DNA from: Sphaerisporangium fuscum
Lineage (GTDB): Bacteria > Actinomycetota > Actinomycetes > Streptosporangiales > Streptosporangiaceae
DNA: 64,000 nt
Reading direction: 5' to 3'
Assembly: GCF_018531465.1 (NCBI RefSeq)
Contig: NZ_JAHDTF010000032.1
Coordinates: forward strand, 1-64,000
Of the stretch, positions 42,942 through 47,542 are shown piece by piece. The notes under the pieces were generated by a model. That model worked only from the letters and a program-made list of their open reading frames with translations. It made no database searches and was not told where the DNA came from. Position 1 is the first letter of the stretch; each line of letters begins with the position of its first letter. The position numbers were made by a program, and so were the translations under genes.

Positions 42942-44963
42942 TCACCCGGCCTCGTGGCGGGCCTTGACGATGTCGGGGTCCTCCGGGTCGAGGGCGTAGG
43001 CGCGGTCGAGGTCGTCCATGGCCTCCGCCGGCCTTCCGAGGGACTTCAGGGCGAGCGCCCGGTTGAAGTACAGCGCCGCGTCCTCCCCCAGTTCGATGGC
43101 ACGGGTCAGGTCGGCCACCGCGCCCTCGAGGTCGCCCGCCTCGTACCGCAGGCTCGCCCGGCTGGCCCAGGCGGAGACGAGACCCGGCGCCCCGGCGATC
43201 GCGACGTCGAAGGCCGCCGCGGCCTCCACGAGCCGTCCCGCCGTCATCTCCAGCTGCCCGAGCACGCACGACAGGTGCGGATTGCCGGGCGCCAGGGCCA
43301 GCCCCGCCTCTACGTCGGCGCGTGCGTGCTCGTCGAGGCCGAACTGCACCAGCAGCCCGGCCCGGTTGATGTAGGCGTCGAGGTAGCCGGGGTCGAGCTC
43401 CAGCACATGGTCGAGGTCGGCCTTGGCCCCTTCGAGATCGCCGGTGGAAAGCAGAAGCTGCGCCCGGTTGTAGTACCCCTCCGGGAGGGGCGGGCTCAGC
43501 CGGATGGCGGTCTCGTAGTCGGCCAGCGCCGCCTCCGTCCGTCCCATCTGGTAGAGCAGGTTGCCGCGGTCGAGGTAGTAGTCGGAGTAGAGCGGGTCCA
43601 TGGCGATGGCCGCGTCGAACTCGGCGAGCGCGTCCCCGGGGGACCCGAGCATCCCGAGAAGCTGGGCACGGTTGGCGCGCAGGATCATCCGGTGCACCAG
43701 GTGCCGTCCCGGCGGGAGGTCGGCCTCCGCCAGCGCGATCGCCGAGTCGACGAGCGCGAGCGCCCGGTCGATGTGGCCGCCGCGCATCTCGATCAGGGCT
43801 TTGCCGTTGAGGTCGAAGCCCAGCTTGAACGCCCGGACGGCGCGGTCGGGCAGCAGTTCGCTGATGGCGATGGCCTCGTTGATCCATCCCTGGGCCCGGC
43901 CGAGGTCGCGGCGGGCGGGGTCGGGATGCCGCGCGTCGAGCATCGCCCTGCCGTACGCCGAGGCCGAGTGCACCTCGGCGTCGGTGCTGGTGCGGCGGGC
44001 GCGCTCGTACAGCTCCCGGGCCTCGTCCCTGCGCCCGGCCCCGGCGAGGGCCGTCGCGGTGCCCTGGATGAAGTTCCACCAGCGCCCGGAACCGGGTTCG
44101 GCCAGTTTCAGGCCCCGCAGGCCGAGATCGGCCGCCGCCTCCAGGAATCCCTCCCCCATGCAGTGGTCGAGCGCGCTCCACAGCGCCTCGACCCCCGCAC
44201 CGGTGGGGTCGCTACCGCGCTCCCGGTGGAAGGGGATGGCCCCGAGCGCCCAGGAGGGCTCTCCCGTCGCGGCCAGCTCGTCGGCCCGCTGGTCGTGCAG
44301 GCGGGCGCGCTCGGCCGGGGGCAGCGCCTGATAGGCGCGTATCGTCTCGGGATCGTCGGCGATGCCATCGGAGGCGACATAACGGGCCGGAGAAATCGAC
44401 TGTTCCTCCATGGCCGATAATTCGGCCTTTATGATTCGTCCCCCGAATGAATCAGGTGGCGCTTTACTGGAACAGGCGACAATTGTCAAACTCGCGGGGT
44501 CGAATCGACGGAGGAGGGTGAGCAGAAGTTCACGATCCGTCTCGTCCGCCTCGTCCGCGTTGTCCACGACGATGACCCTGGGCGCGACGCCGCAGTCCCG
44601 GACGAATTCGGTGATTCCATTGGCGAGCCGCAGCGTGCGCCGAGGGGCGGGCACGAGGATGCGCTCCTCCTCCGACAGGCGCGTGTAGAGCGGCTCGCGC
44701 CGGGCGGGCACCCGATCACGAAGATCGGGTGCCGCTGCTCGGATCTCGACGTCGTGTCGTTCGACGACCGCAGCGGAGCGCTCCAAAGCGGCCGGAACCA
44801 GGGCACGCAGGAGCGATCCGCCGAAGGTGTACGGCCCCCGGAGACGACGGTGGGCGTCGTGGACGGGGGCCGGCCACACGGACGGACCGAGCCCCGCCAG
44901 CACGTCAAGGCGGTCCCTCGACCGCCCTCCATGGACCCAGAGGTGGGCAGGGAGGGTGGTCAC
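42942..44963 (-). CDS. TPR-repeat protein with NTPase-like N-terminal domain lacking a P-loop
   Basis: 673 residues. The first 200 resemble the front of STAND/AAA16-type ATPases: RLRGPYTFGGSLLRALVP and a Walker B-like VIVVDNADEADETD near residue 135, yet no GxxxxGK[ST] is present. Residues about 255-670 are tetratricopeptide repeats (repeated A-x-x-DY/E-x-AI-x-L-x-P, YYNRAQLLL, AYINRAGLL, YFNRALALKSLG). GTG at 44963 overlaps the TGA of a 24-codon peptide gene (GTGA), so both are translationally coupled. Probably a binding scaffold; partner may be the peptide. I do not recognise a characterised homologue. Confidence 0.85.
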   Translation of the reverse strand: MTTLPAHLWVHGGRSRDRLDVLAGLGPSVWPAPVHDAHRRLRGPYTFGGSLLRALVPAALERSAAVVERHDVEIRAAAPDLRDRVPARREPLYTRLSEEERILVPAPRRTLRLANGITEFVRDCGVAPRVIVVDNADEADETDRELLLTLLRRFDPASLTIVACSSKAPPDSFGGRIIKAELSAMEEQSISPARYVASDGIADDPETIRAYQALPPAERARLHDQRADELAATGEPSWALGAIPFHRERGSDPTGAGVEALWSALDHCMGEGFLEAAADLGLRGLKLAEPGSGRWWNFIQGTATALAGAGRRDEARELYERARRTSTDAEVHSASAYGRAMLDARHPDPARRDLGRAQGWINEAIAISELLPDRAVRAFKLGFDLNGKALIEMRGGHIDRALALVDSAIALAEADLPPGRHLVHRMILRANRAQLLGMLGSPGDALAEFDAAIAMDPLYSDYYLDRGNLLYQMGRTEAALADYETAIRLSPPLPEGYYNRAQLLLSTGDLEGAKADLDHVLELDPGYLDAYINRAGLLVQFGLDEHARADVEAGLALAPGNPHLSCVLGQLEMTAGRLVEAAAAFDVAIAGAPGLVSAWASRASLRYEAGDLEGAVADLTRAIELGEDAALYFNRALALKSLGRPAEAMDDLDRAYALDPEDPDIVKARHEAG

Positions 44964-45034
44964 CCCTTGTGGATCGCACTGGCCGTGCCGGTGAGGTGCA
45001 CCATGCCAGGCTTGCGGACAACGATCTTCTTCAT
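44960..45034 (-). CDS. 24-residue basic micro-peptide coupled to the TPR protein
   Basis: ATG at 45034 with GAGGAGG 9 bases upstream opens a 24-codon frame whose product begins MKKIVVRKPG and ends in ASAIHKG. It is basic (four Lys, one Arg, two His), Thr/Ser-containing and has no Cys. Its TGA overlaps the GTG start of the TPR gene, which argues that it is translated. It could be a signalling peptide, a RiPP precursor, a toxin, or merely a leader cistron that sets translation of the TPR protein. I do not recognise its family. Confidence 0.65.
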   Translation of the reverse strand: MKKIVVRKPGMVHLTGTASAIHKG

Positions 45035-45120
45035 CGGGTGTGCCCTCCTCAGGTCTTCGAGCTACAAAGACCCTATTATTCGGACAAATCCCTAATCCGC
45101 AAGCATTGAAGTTAGGACTT

Positions 45121-45639
45121 TCATGTTATAGGCGAATTACTTCTAACGATGAGTTGGGGTGACGACTCGGGCACCAAGGGCTTCTCACCGTAAACCACGA
45201 CAAGACCGCCCCTGTCCTCACGGCGGAGTTCTCGCCAGCCGAACTTGCGGTAGAGCTCCAGCGCGGCGCCCTGCCGCAGCGTCGTGTCGCCGCGAAGCGC
45301 GCGGTAGCCGAGCTTCCTCGCCGATTCCTCCAGGGCCACGAGGACCTGGGCGCCGAAGCCGCGCCGCTGGAAGTCCGGGTGGACCCGCAGCCGGCACACC
45401 TCCGCCGTCTCCTCGTCGAGACGCCGCAGGCCTCCCATGGCGACGATGCCCGCCCCCTCCACCTCACCGACGAGGAAGTCGCCCCTGTCGGCCAGGTAGA
45501 CCTGGTTGATGCGCGGCATGTCGTCGTCGTAGTAGACGCCGTCCCCTTCGAAGATGCCGACCTGCGCGAGACATGTGCGGTGGAGCTCCCAGACGGCTTC
45601 CCGATCCGACCAGCGATACCGCCTGAGCACAAGCGTCAT
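45121..45639 (-). CDS. GNAT-family N-acetyltransferase
   Basis: 172 residues. Acetyl-CoA-binding motif A is CRLRVHPDFQRRGFGAQVL (R-x-x-G-x-G/A), with motif B near ALELYRKFGWRE. Substrate unknown. ATG at 45639 overlaps the stop of the XRE/TPR regulator gene (ATGA), so it is translationally coupled to it. The last codons (AGA AGT AAT ... ATA ACA) are AT-rich and unlike the rest, as though the gene's end runs into the promoter of the following micro-peptide. Confidence 0.9.
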   Translation of the reverse strand: MTLVLRRYRWSDREAVWELHRTCLAQVGIFEGDGVYYDDDMPRINQVYLADRGDFLVGEVEGAGIVAMGGLRRLDEETAEVCRLRVHPDFQRRGFGAQVLVALEESARKLGYRALRGDTTLRQGAALELYRKFGWRELRREDRGGLVVVYGEKPLVPESSPQLIVRSNSPIT

Positions 45640-47216
45640 GCACTGGCCTCCGGCCCCGGAGCGGCGGAGGGGGCCGGCGAGGCGAGGCGCGCCTCGAACT
45701 CCCGCAGCCCGGGGATGTCGCCGCACTTCAGGCGGATCGCCCCGACGAGCTCGTTGGCGCGGCGCAAGATGATGTCGGTGCGGAAGCCTTCGCCGACCCG
45801 CGTCACCGCCTCTGCGCCCATCCGCAACGCCTCGTCGCCGTCGCCTTCGAGCAGTCTGCAGTGGGCCTGGTCGAACCTGATCAGCGTCTGGTCGAGCAGG
45901 TCTCCCTCGTACTTCTCCAGGGCCTGCTCGAGGATGAGGTCGGCCTCGATGGTCTGGCCGAGGCGGGCCAGCGCGTCGCCCTGGTGGAAGTAGAGCTGGC
46001 GTTCGGTGTAGCCGAAGACCGTGTCCTCCTGCTGGGAGGGGGTCATCTGGGCGAAGGCCGCCCGAGCGCGGGCCAGCGCCCGCTTGGCCTGGTCGACGAC
46101 GTCCTTCTTGCCGGCCGAGTTGGCGAGCATCGAAAGGGCCCGGGCCTCCACGACCGGTGCCATGGCCTTGGCCGCGCATGGTGTCTGCCCCGCGAGGTCG
46201 CGGCTCTTCTTGGCGAGGTTGAGGGCCTCCCGCGGATCGCCGAGGAACAGGGGCACCAGCGCCTCACGGGCCGTGACCCAGGCCCGCAGCGCGCGGTCGC
46301 CGGTCTCGTCGGCGGCGGCACGGGAGGTGCGGAAGAACGACCGGGCGAGCCGCTGGTCGCCGAGGTCGATCATGATGATGCCGGCCAGGCCGGAGAGCCG
46401 GGCGGCCAGGCCGCACAGCCGTTCCTGCAGGTCCATGGGCTGGTGACGCTCCATCGCCTGGCGGACCGTGCTGAACTCCAACAGCACGTCGCACAGCTGC
46501 CGCAGCGGCGGAGTGTTCATGTACTGCCGTCCGAAGGAGGCGGCGGCCTCCTCCCAGTGGTCCAGCATGGCCGGCGAAACGGTGCTCGACACGAGGGTCT
46601 CGTCCATACGCCGGCGGATGTTCTCGGCGGCCCCGAGCACCGACTCGTTGAGCAGCTCGCTCGTCGGCGCCGCGGCAGCGGTGCCCGCGATGAGCCCAAG
46701 CAGCGTCCTACGTAACACGTTCTCGTCCTCCTCACCCCCGACCGCGGAGAGGTCGCCGAGCGGTTTCTTCCACGTCTCGCGCGACTCGGGGGAATCTTCG
46801 GGTGTGACCTCCTGGAGGCCGCCGCGTACGACACCCGGCATGCGATGGCCGTGACCACAGATGCACGGGCCGTCGTATCCGAGGGCGGCCGGCTCTACCC
46901 GGTAGACGCTGCACAGGTAATGGAGATACTCGGGACCGGGTCGCTTCAGCCCGCTCTCGTAAGCGCTCAGGAGCGTTTCCCCGATGCCGGGCACGGCCTT
47001 GCCGTCGCGATCGAACAAGGCGCGCACCTGTTCGATTACGTCGGCGAGGGCGATACCGTGGGCGAGACGGTGAGATTTGATTCGAGTTGTCCCGAATTGC
47101 GGACCACACTCTTCGTAAATCTCTTCGGCGATGCGTGCGGCACTCTGCCCGACCGCCAGTCCGCGCGCCCGGGTTCGCCGCGCTAACTCCGTTTCCTTGT
47201 GCTGTCTGCCGGACAT
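45636..47216 (-). CDS. XRE-type regulator with TPR-like sensor domain
   Basis: 526 residues. An N-terminal helix-turn-helix-like region (about 20-105, RIKSHRLAHGIALADVIEQ ... GETLLSAYESGLKRPGPEYL) is followed by an odd CICGHGH cluster that could bind metal, then about 330 residues of helical TPR-like repeats. The arrangement recalls actinobacterial developmental regulators such as NsdA, in which the helical part senses peptides or proteins. ATG at 47216 follows AAGGGAGGGG. Its stop overlaps the GNAT start (ATGA). It heads the minus-strand set GNAT, micro-peptide, TPR protein. Confidence 0.85.
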   Translation of the reverse strand: MSGRQHKETELARRTRARGLAVGQSAARIAEEIYEECGPQFGTTRIKSHRLAHGIALADVIEQVRALFDRDGKAVPGIGETLLSAYESGLKRPGPEYLHYLCSVYRVEPAALGYDGPCICGHGHRMPGVVRGGLQEVTPEDSPESRETWKKPLGDLSAVGGEEDENVLRRTLLGLIAGTAAAAPTSELLNESVLGAAENIRRRMDETLVSSTVSPAMLDHWEEAAASFGRQYMNTPPLRQLCDVLLEFSTVRQAMERHQPMDLQERLCGLAARLSGLAGIIMIDLGDQRLARSFFRTSRAAADETGDRALRAWVTAREALVPLFLGDPREALNLAKKSRDLAGQTPCAAKAMAPVVEARALSMLANSAGKKDVVDQAKRALARARAAFAQMTPSQQEDTVFGYTERQLYFHQGDALARLGQTIEADLILEQALEKYEGDLLDQTLIRFDQAHCRLLEGDGDEALRMGAEAVTRVGEGFRTDIILRRANELVGAIRLKCGDIPGLREFEARLASPAPSAAPGPEASA

Positions 47217-47542
47217 ACCGGCCCCTCCCTTGTGTCCAGCCGCTCTTCCTGGCCACATATCCCGACCGGTTCCACCTGCGCTGACGCAGCATCACTCCCG
47301 GGTTACGCTGCGTCTGCTGAGAATGATGGCCCAGATATGACCAGCCTTGTAAGGACGAATCAAGCCGCTGGCATAGGATCGTCCTCCGCCGGGGACGTTC
47401 TTTCAACCCACTTGAAATATCCCCTCACCCAAGCGGCCCCAAGCCTTCGTTGACCACATCGGCCATGGTGAGTCAGATTTGGCCAACCAGCCCCGATTCA
47501 CTCGGCGAGAGCCGCCCGAATCGGATTCAAGGAGGGCTCGAA
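47217..47542. other. divergent intergenic region, XRE/TPR regulator / small gene
   Basis: About 325 bases without a credible gene, relatively AT-rich (47320-47430). A possible plus-strand promoter is TTGACC (47450) with 17-base spacing to TCAGAT (47473). AAGGAGG ends 7 bases before the next start. Confidence 0.4.

What the first reader, a model, noticed from the sequence alone, without database searches (positions are those of the whole stretch)
42942..45034. 24-residue micro-peptide translationally coupled to a P-loop-less TPR protein
A 24-codon frame with a strong ribosome binding site (GAGGAGG) ends in TGA that overlaps the GTG start of a 673-residue TPR protein. The product is basic (MKKIVVRKPG at the front, IHKG at the end). 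The TPR protein has an NTPase-like front with Walker B but no Walker A. TPR domains commonly bind short peptides, so peptide and scaffold may form a receptor-ligand, precursor-binding or toxin-holding pair. I know no named system of this form. The alternative, that the peptide is only a leader cistron, must be kept.
Basis: partly seen in the sequence, partly recalled or inferred. Interest (0 to 1): 0.78.

Follow-up and report, generated by a model that had tools for sequence, protein, structure and literature searches.

The report
Tiny peptide paired with TPR protein
A 24-residue peptide gene sits head-to-tail with a large repeat protein gene in soil actinomycetes; both are conserved together across many species, and the peptide looks like the shortened relative of precursors used to make modified peptides, so this is probably an unnamed peptide-and-partner system.

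Summary
The 24-codon gene (44960-45034, minus strand) is real. The 30 best TPR loci, the window included, all carry it directly upstream. Its codons are under purifying selection (pN/pS 0.27; other frames 1.4-1.5). In 341 family genomes, peptide and TPR gene occur together in 158, one without the other in 3.

In Streptomyces, Kitasatospora, Nocardia and Frankiaceae relatives that leader precedes a variable Cys/Tyr core, and a gene for an RRE-like domain fused to an HExxH membrane protein stands between peptide and TPR gene. These look like RiPP-type loci. The window genome gave no match to that protein. Its form has only peptide plus TPR, with a fixed, Cys-free tail (IHKG).

The TPR protein's front is a pseudo-STAND domain: invariant RGPY at the Walker A place, Walker B acid not conserved. 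Best reading: a RiPP-precursor-derived peptide, made in step with its acidic TPR partner and bound by it in the cell. Binding and output are inferred. A leader cistron alone is disfavoured.

The parts
44960..45034 (-). Micropeptide gene, 24 codons plus TGA: MKKIVVRKPGMVHLTGTASAIHKG
45043..45050 (-). Ribosome-binding site GAGGAGGG of the micropeptide
   Evidence: 60 of 60 distinct IHKG contexts carry a GAGG/GGAGG/GGAG/GGGG site
45075..45102 (-). AT-rich promoter-like stretch TTGCGG-16 nt-AATAAT (tentative)
   Evidence: Read by eye; a pattern made from these sequences fits 27 of 59 distinct type-A upstreams against 0.3% of shuffles (post hoc); the sigma-70 scan finds nothing
42942..44963 (-). 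TPR protein, 673 aa, GTG start overlapping the micropeptide stop
44364..44942 (-). Pseudo-STAND/AAA front domain (about aa 8-200); invariant RGPY at aa 42-45 where a P-loop would be
   Evidence: AAA_16 partial match E=2e-5, profile positions 39-166 of 167, below Pfam's curated cut-off; alignments
42945..44153 (-). TPR superhelix (about aa 271-673), net charge -21
   Evidence: mean pLDDT 93; best PDB match: OGT, E 4.5e-12

Best explanation
The 24-codon frame is a genuine micropeptide gene and forms a two-gene unit with the TPR gene (shown by comparison). It is a reduced form of a three-gene actinobacterial system: leader peptide with Cys/Tyr core, then an RRE-like domain fused to an HExxH membrane protein (probably an RRE-site-2-protease type), then a pseudo-STAND TPR protein (shown by homology; the direction, reduction rather than gain, is inferred). 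Leader and TPR protein are the two elements common to all forms, so the TPR protein most probably recognises the leader (inferred). In the window's form peptide and TPR protein are translated in step through the GTGA overlap (inferred from the overlap). The basic peptide is then held by the acidic TPR superhelix inside the cell, as a bound ligand or small subunit that sets the state of the pseudo-STAND domain (inferred). Its fixed Cys-free tail IHKG argues against a diversified secreted product.
For: 30 of 30 best TPR loci carry the 24-mer; 18 of 20 more distant loci carry a family peptide, directly upstream in 12 and ahead of the RRE/HExxH gene in 6. Purifying selection: pN/pS 0.271 for codons 2-12 and 0.269 for 13-24; in 24 non-overlapping pairs 60 of 170 changes are non-synonymous where a fraction of 0.754 is expected, p=3.5e-28. 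Co-occurrence 158 both, 2 TPR only, 1 peptide only, 180 neither of 341. In the class sample 30 of 32 TPR genes have a leader peptide upstream on the same strand. Peptide class labels the TPR tree almost cleanly: 4 changes, least possible 3, shuffled mean 18.1. RRE fold of the partner: the six best PDB matches are lasso-peptide RRE-leader complexes. HExxH plus a distal Asp invariant in 10 of 10 rows. Of 19 TPR-and-peptide genomes in the class sample 12 lack a close RRE/HExxH protein (6 have only distant relatives of it, 6 no match), so the leader is probably kept for something else. TPR proteins carry net charge -12 to -43 in 24 of 24 aligned; the window peptide +5.
Against: No physical binding was tested; no complex could be modelled. 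Negative charge is common in TPR proteins. Seven peptides stand without a TPR or RRE gene downstream on their strand (in L076 a TPR gene lies about 3.1 kb away on the other strand), so the peptide may act in trans or be a relic. The root of the TPR tree is unknown, so 'reduced' could be 'ancestral'. Foldseek gives no match at E<=0.001 for the RRE/HExxH model (mean pLDDT 63): the RRE matches have E 0.024-0.084 although probability is 1.00, and the membrane part matches SpoIVFB only at E=2.1.
Confidence: 0.55

Rival explanations
1. The peptide is still a RiPP-type precursor that is modified and cleaved in trans by enzymes elsewhere in the genome; the TPR protein is a carrier, maturation or self-protection factor.
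For: Same leader as Cys/Tyr-core precursors next to an RRE/HExxH protein; tandem precursor copies in L111, L158, L075 and L051. In frame clustering of 11 larger three-gene loci a regulator (BTAD/NB-ARC by Pfam in the one tested, L271) is in 6 and an FMN oxidoreductase (Pfam in the two tested) in 5.
Against: The window genome gives no match to the RRE/HExxH protein at E<=1e-3. The tail of type A is fixed (IHKG) and Cys-free, more conserved than the leader. In that clustering no enzyme other than the RRE/HExxH protein is in more than 5 of the 11 loci.
Confidence: 0.25
2. RRNPP-like communication: the peptide is exported, matured, re-imported and read by the TPR receptor.
For: Adjacent small peptide and TPR protein, two of the signature features listed for RRNPP systems (passages of PMC10075063); an HExxH membrane protein in the three-gene relatives.
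Against: The receptor is 673 aa, outside the 250-500 aa of that signature, with no DNA-binding domain among the Pfam matches shown (best 25 of 27). The peptide shows no hydrophobic signal stretch by eye (no signal-peptide program was available). The tail is identical across many species, unlike strain-specific signals (the last point recalled).
Confidence: 0.1
3. The 24 codons are only a leader cistron that couples translation of the TPR gene.
For: GTGA overlap in 58 of 60 distinct contexts; AAGGGG directly before the GTG.
Against: Amino acids conserved over the whole frame with free third positions. In H7 peptides the TPR match begins 22-260 nt after the stop (22 rows) and 0 of 8 readable contexts has an overlapping start. 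7 of 85 family peptides have no TPR or RRE gene downstream on their strand. The leader is shared with relatives where another gene follows.
Confidence: 0.04
4. Toxin (peptide) and holder (TPR) pair.
For: Short basic peptide made just before and in step with a larger binding-type protein.
Against: The type-A tail does not diversify; some peptides stand without a TPR gene downstream; PADLOC gives only one hit for the window TPR protein, in its TPR stretch at E=8e-4.
Confidence: 0.05

Closest known systems
RRE-dependent RiPP precursor loci, in particular daptides (Nat Commun 2023, PMC10036551; passages seen)
   Same: Short precursors with a conserved N-terminal motif; in the three-gene relatives an RRE-like domain N-terminally fused to an HExxH membrane protein, like the RRE-intramembrane site-2 protease fusion described there.
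   Different: Leader MKKIxVRKPG instead of ELExMEAP; no invariant C-terminal Thr; the daptide modification genes were not found conserved beside these loci; a pseudo-STAND TPR protein accompanies the peptide; the window genome gave no match to the RRE protein.
RRNPP peptide/TPR receptor systems (Mol Biol Evol 2023, PMC10075063; passages seen)
   Same: Adjacent genes for a tiny peptide and a TPR protein.
   Different: Actinomycete; 673-aa protein with a pseudo-NTPase front and no DNA-binding domain found; no evident secretion signal by eye; tail not diversified.
FxSxx-COOH peptide-processing systems and iSTAND ternary systems (eLife 2020, PMC7159879; sections 20 and 24 read)
   Same: Actinobacterial small protein plus metallopeptidase plus STAND/TPR partner; inactive STAND domains as a theme.
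   Different: There the C-terminal peptide is the conserved part and the precursor varies, with vWA/MoxR partners and, in the FxSxx type, a radical SAM enzyme. None was found in the 8 window proteins given to Pfam; in the 11 larger three-gene loci only one (L275) shows an AAA/ChlI-like and a vWA gene nearby on the other strand (only this locus was tested for them). Here the N-terminal leader is the shared part.

Membership tests
RRE-dependent RiPP precursor | Conserved leader and variable core | tested here: not met
   Type A (window): entropy leader 0.74, tail 0.41, so the tail is fixed. Met in three-gene relatives: 0.60 against 2.09 (part of that set was found through the leader, which favours a conserved leader).
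RRE-dependent RiPP precursor | RRE-bearing protein at the locus or in the genome | tested here: not met
   No match to the RRE/HExxH protein of the relatives in the window genome; the same class search found 18 of 394. RRE proteins of other kinds were not sought. Met in three-gene relatives.
RRE-dependent RiPP precursor | Modified product | not testable with these tools
   No chemistry available.
Daptide | ELExMEAP leader, C-terminal Thr | tested here: not met
   Peptide alignments; the motif is quoted from PMC10036551.
Daptide | RRE fused to intramembrane site-2 protease | tested here: inconclusive
   No match in the window genome; in relatives RRE fold and HExxH are present, but the site-2 protease fold match is weak.
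RRNPP | Peptide gene adjacent to a TPR receptor gene | tested here: met
RRNPP | Receptor of 250-500 aa | tested here: not met
   673 aa; limits from PMC10075063
RRNPP | Propeptide exported by Sec or PptAB | not testable with these tools
   No signal-peptide predictor; no hydrophobic stretch by eye.
Leader cistron only | No amino-acid selection on the frame | tested here: not met
   pN/pS 0.27 over both halves
FxSxx-COOH peptide-processing | Conserved C-terminal motif with zincin-type peptidase and vWA/MoxR partners nearby | tested here: not met
   Not among the 8 window proteins given to Pfam; AAA/ChlI-like and vWA genes seen near one relative locus (L275) and not among the frame families shared by 3 or more of the 11 larger loci; other window frames were not scanned.

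The most novel reading that the evidence does not exclude
A RiPP precursor family has been turned into a fixed intracellular ligand: the recognition leader was kept, the modifiable core and the RRE protease were dropped, and the peptide now serves as the dedicated, co-translated partner of a pseudo-STAND TPR protein. As far as my searches reach, that would be a peptide-receptor architecture not described in actinomycetes.
Probability: 0.35. Interest if true: 0.82.

Novelty: new variant of a known kind. Interest (0 to 1): 0.7.

Why it matters
No Pfam or NCBIfam model matched the peptide (relatives), no model named the pairing, and strings of its leader were not found in the held PMC library. 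It is a compact two-gene case where a RiPP-type leader is conserved without the RRE protein of its relatives, so it makes one question directly testable: can a TPR protein be the leader receptor, and can a biosynthetic precursor become a regulatory micropeptide? The three-gene relatives, with Cys/Tyr cores, are also a defined target for natural-product discovery.

Tried and rejected
The search for related loci with the TPR front found nothing (105 pattern stretches, none confirmed). GNAT neighbour as part of the system: rejected. It matches in 66 of 130 family genomes, including peptide-negative ones such as G013, G017, G018, G021, G022, G024 (53-59% identity there, 59-80% in most peptide-bearing ones, so some may be paralogues), and in G002, G003 and G004 it lies on another contig than the peptide. 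The TPR-type protein upstream and NUDIX downstream: kept as neighbours only. Phage carriage: 0 exact matches in viral contigs for one leader pattern. Defence system: no convincing PADLOC match. Sigma-70 promoter: scan negative; the promoter-like stretch is by eye plus a post hoc pattern that misses 32 of 59 upstreams. PDB relatives of the pseudo-STAND front by sequence: none credible (two arginine deiminase matches at E about 0.5). Literature: listings showed no description of this pairing, but searches list only the top 20, 10, 10 and 12 of 9,750, 52, 28 and 270 papers. Looked into: PMC12710340 (section 6 and passages), PMC7470986, PMC10075063, PMC10036551 (passages), PMC7159879 (sections 20 and 24, and passages). 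Dropped before counts: L134 (false pattern hit) of 86 rows; L162 (tile ends 44 nt after the peptide) counted as undecided. The H7 set is 17 24-mers; longer or odd ones were left out, among them L131, which ends in Cys. Three TPR rows of the tree (L240, L241, L253) had no peptide by my script's pattern; one search finds one upstream of each.

Full report
1. Observation. A degenerate pattern for the peptide occurs once in the window and in none of 100 shuffles. The searches found one copy of the peptide and one of the TPR gene in it.

2. Conservation. The TPR front (aa 1-301) was sought in 341 family genomes: 160 with a match at E<=1e-3. The 30 best loci, one of them the window, all have a 24-residue peptide directly upstream, beginning MK[KR]I and ending IHKG. 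Of 20 more distant loci 12 have a family peptide directly upstream. In 6 more the peptide lies ahead of an extra gene; none was found for L049 and L045. A profile of the peptide (24 rows) matched 159 of 341 genomes at E<=0.01. Comparing the two tables by hand: 158 both, G028 and G265 TPR only, G275 peptide only, 180 neither. In a class sample of 394 genomes the TPR front profile matched 19 (E<=1e-10). The leader profile matched the same 19 at E<=1.7e-7, plus four weak partial hits. 30 of 32 TPR genes there have the leader upstream on the same strand, at 18-155 nt, or at 1333-1635 nt with the extra gene between (distances between matches); the exceptions are G163:C79 and the weak match G309:C2. 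The other way round, 4 of 34 listed peptides have no listed TPR gene downstream: G163:C69 (near a contig end), G195:C42 (partial match), and G201:C4 and G309:C32, which are orphans of the kind in paragraph 4.

3. Selection. 49 distinct IHKG-type coding sequences gave 1176 pairs: pN/pS 0.270 in frame, 1.395 and 1.473 in the other frames. Both halves behave alike, 0.271 and 0.269. 24 non-overlapping nearest pairs have 60 non-synonymous and 110 synonymous changes, where 75.4% non-synonymous is expected (p=3.5e-28). Pairs in the pooled figure are not independent; the 24 pairs are nearer to it. The last codon (GGG) is partly constrained by the GTG overlap.

4. Three forms. 85 family peptides remained after dropping one false hit: 77 have a TPR gene or the extra gene downstream on the same strand (in 5 of these only the extra gene is seen because the tile ends), 1 is cut off, and 7 have neither (L063, L076, L113, L124, L131, L159, L168; L076 has a TPR gene about 3.1 kb away on the other strand). 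Form A (window): peptide ...IHKG overlapping the TPR gene. Form B: H at position 7, tails such as ATPKHAA or ASAKHLP; the TPR match begins 22-260 nt after the stop (22 rows), and no overlapping start was found in the 8 contexts that could be read back. Form P: peptide(s), then a protein of about 430 aa, then TPR, in this order in all 7 named loci where all three fit the tile. In form P the leader MKKIxVRK[PA]GxVRLT precedes a core that has Cys and Tyr in 18 of 18 examples; of 50 form-A and form-B 24-mers 1 has Cys in the tail (the 26-residue L131 peptide, not in that set, ends in Cys). Part of the P peptides were found through the leader, so leader conservation in that set is favoured by the search; the cores were not used to find them. 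Peptide form is a clean label on the TPR tree of 61 rows: A 42 rows one split (93/87), P 10 rows one split (100/97), B beside A except L032, which falls with P.

5. The extra protein. Pfam gives only a sub-threshold PqqD hit (E=0.044). The model (mean pLDDT 63) has a three-strand, three-helix front. No PDB match reaches E 0.001; the six best are lasso-peptide RRE proteins bound to leaders (E 0.024-0.084, probability 1.00), followed by ThcOx, McbB and, lower, PqqD. HExxH and a distal Asp are invariant in 10 of 10 aligned rows. The membrane part resembles SpoIVFB only weakly (rank 20, E=2.1). An RRE fused to a site-2 protease is described in daptide loci (PMC10036551, passages). Close copies (E<1e-90) are in 7 of 394 class genomes, including all three TPR-positive genomes outside the family; of the other 12 TPR-positive genomes 6 have only distant relatives and 6 no match. 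The window genome has no match. In 11 larger P loci, clustering of frames filtered by third-position GC puts the RRE protein in 9 and the TPR protein in 6, a regulator in 6 (Pfam: BTAD and NB-ARC in the one tested) and an FMN oxidoreductase in 5 (Pfam in the two tested). One of the 11, L275, also has an AAA/ChlI-like gene and a vWA gene on the other strand.

6. The TPR protein. The model is confident (mean pLDDT 93) and its best PDB matches are the OGT TPR superhelix. The front looks STAND-derived (AAA_16 from profile position 39, E=2e-5, below the curated cut-off). R42, G43, P44, Y45 and A139, D140, D143, E145 are invariant in 24 of 24 aligned, while the Walker B acid varies. It is best called a pseudo-STAND domain. 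All 24 aligned TPR proteins are acidic (-12 to -43); the window peptide is +5.

7. Mechanism. Shown by comparison: a real, selected peptide; genetic pairing; stop-start overlap in form A; relation to RRE-type loci. Inferred: the TPR protein binds the leader, because leader and TPR protein are what all forms share and the leader persists in genomes without a close RRE protein; in form A the peptide is a fixed intracellular ligand or subunit. In the four form-A loci that lack a TPR gene (L063, L113, L124, L168) residue 7 is H, as in form B, instead of R, which would fit recognition by a form-B TPR protein in trans; L066 shows the same change with a form-A TPR gene present, L124 and L168 are near-copies, and such loci may simply be decaying, so this is only a hint.

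8. Standing. The pair is not filed as a RiPP: variable core and RRE protein were tested and not met in the window form. It works like, and probably descends from, an RRE-type precursor locus. It is not filed as RRNPP (receptor size not met). Searches for leader strings and for the combination of parts in the held PMC library showed no description (several list only their top rows); most subscription papers are not in that library.

Noticed in passing
L063:4202, L113:1809, L124 and L168 (peptide strands as); also G201:C4 and G309:C32: Form-A loci where no TPR gene was found but the peptide remains; residue 7 is H instead of R, and the tail drifts (IHEG, IHTG) in three of the four named ones.
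   Followed up: partly
L219 and L215: Other microprecursors (MKKLVVRKLEPIKTSANADCVPAAA; MKKLIVRRLESVKTSAATSCSVVVA) just upstream of distant relatives of the RRE/HExxH protein, with no TPR gene seen in the short loci: possibly a sister family.
   Followed up: no
L222, L223: Distant RRE/HExxH relatives stand downstream of a frame with a ThiF/E1-like motif (read by eye) and beside small related frames in two genomes of the Microbispora genus group (g30).
   Followed up: no
L158 (three copies), L111, L075, L051 (two copies each): Tandem copies of the leader peptide ahead of the RRE/HExxH gene, as is usual for RiPP precursors.
   Followed up: partly
window 45121-47258, minus strand: The upstream GNAT acetyltransferase (45121-45639) overlaps by 4 nt a 540-aa protein with weak TPR matches and a front that looks like a helix-turn-helix by eye; the GNAT neighbour is kept beside most form-A loci but also occurs in genomes without the peptide.
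   Followed up: partly
L064 and L097 (Nocardia): Frames for a histidine kinase and a LuxR-type response regulator lie beside the three-gene form (Pfam-tested in L064; judged by similar frames in L097).
   Followed up: no
L275:3303-6681: Beside one three-gene locus, on the other strand, lie an AAA/ChlI-like gene and a vWA-domain gene, a couple reminiscent of the MoxR-vWA systems of PMC7159879.
   Followed up: partly
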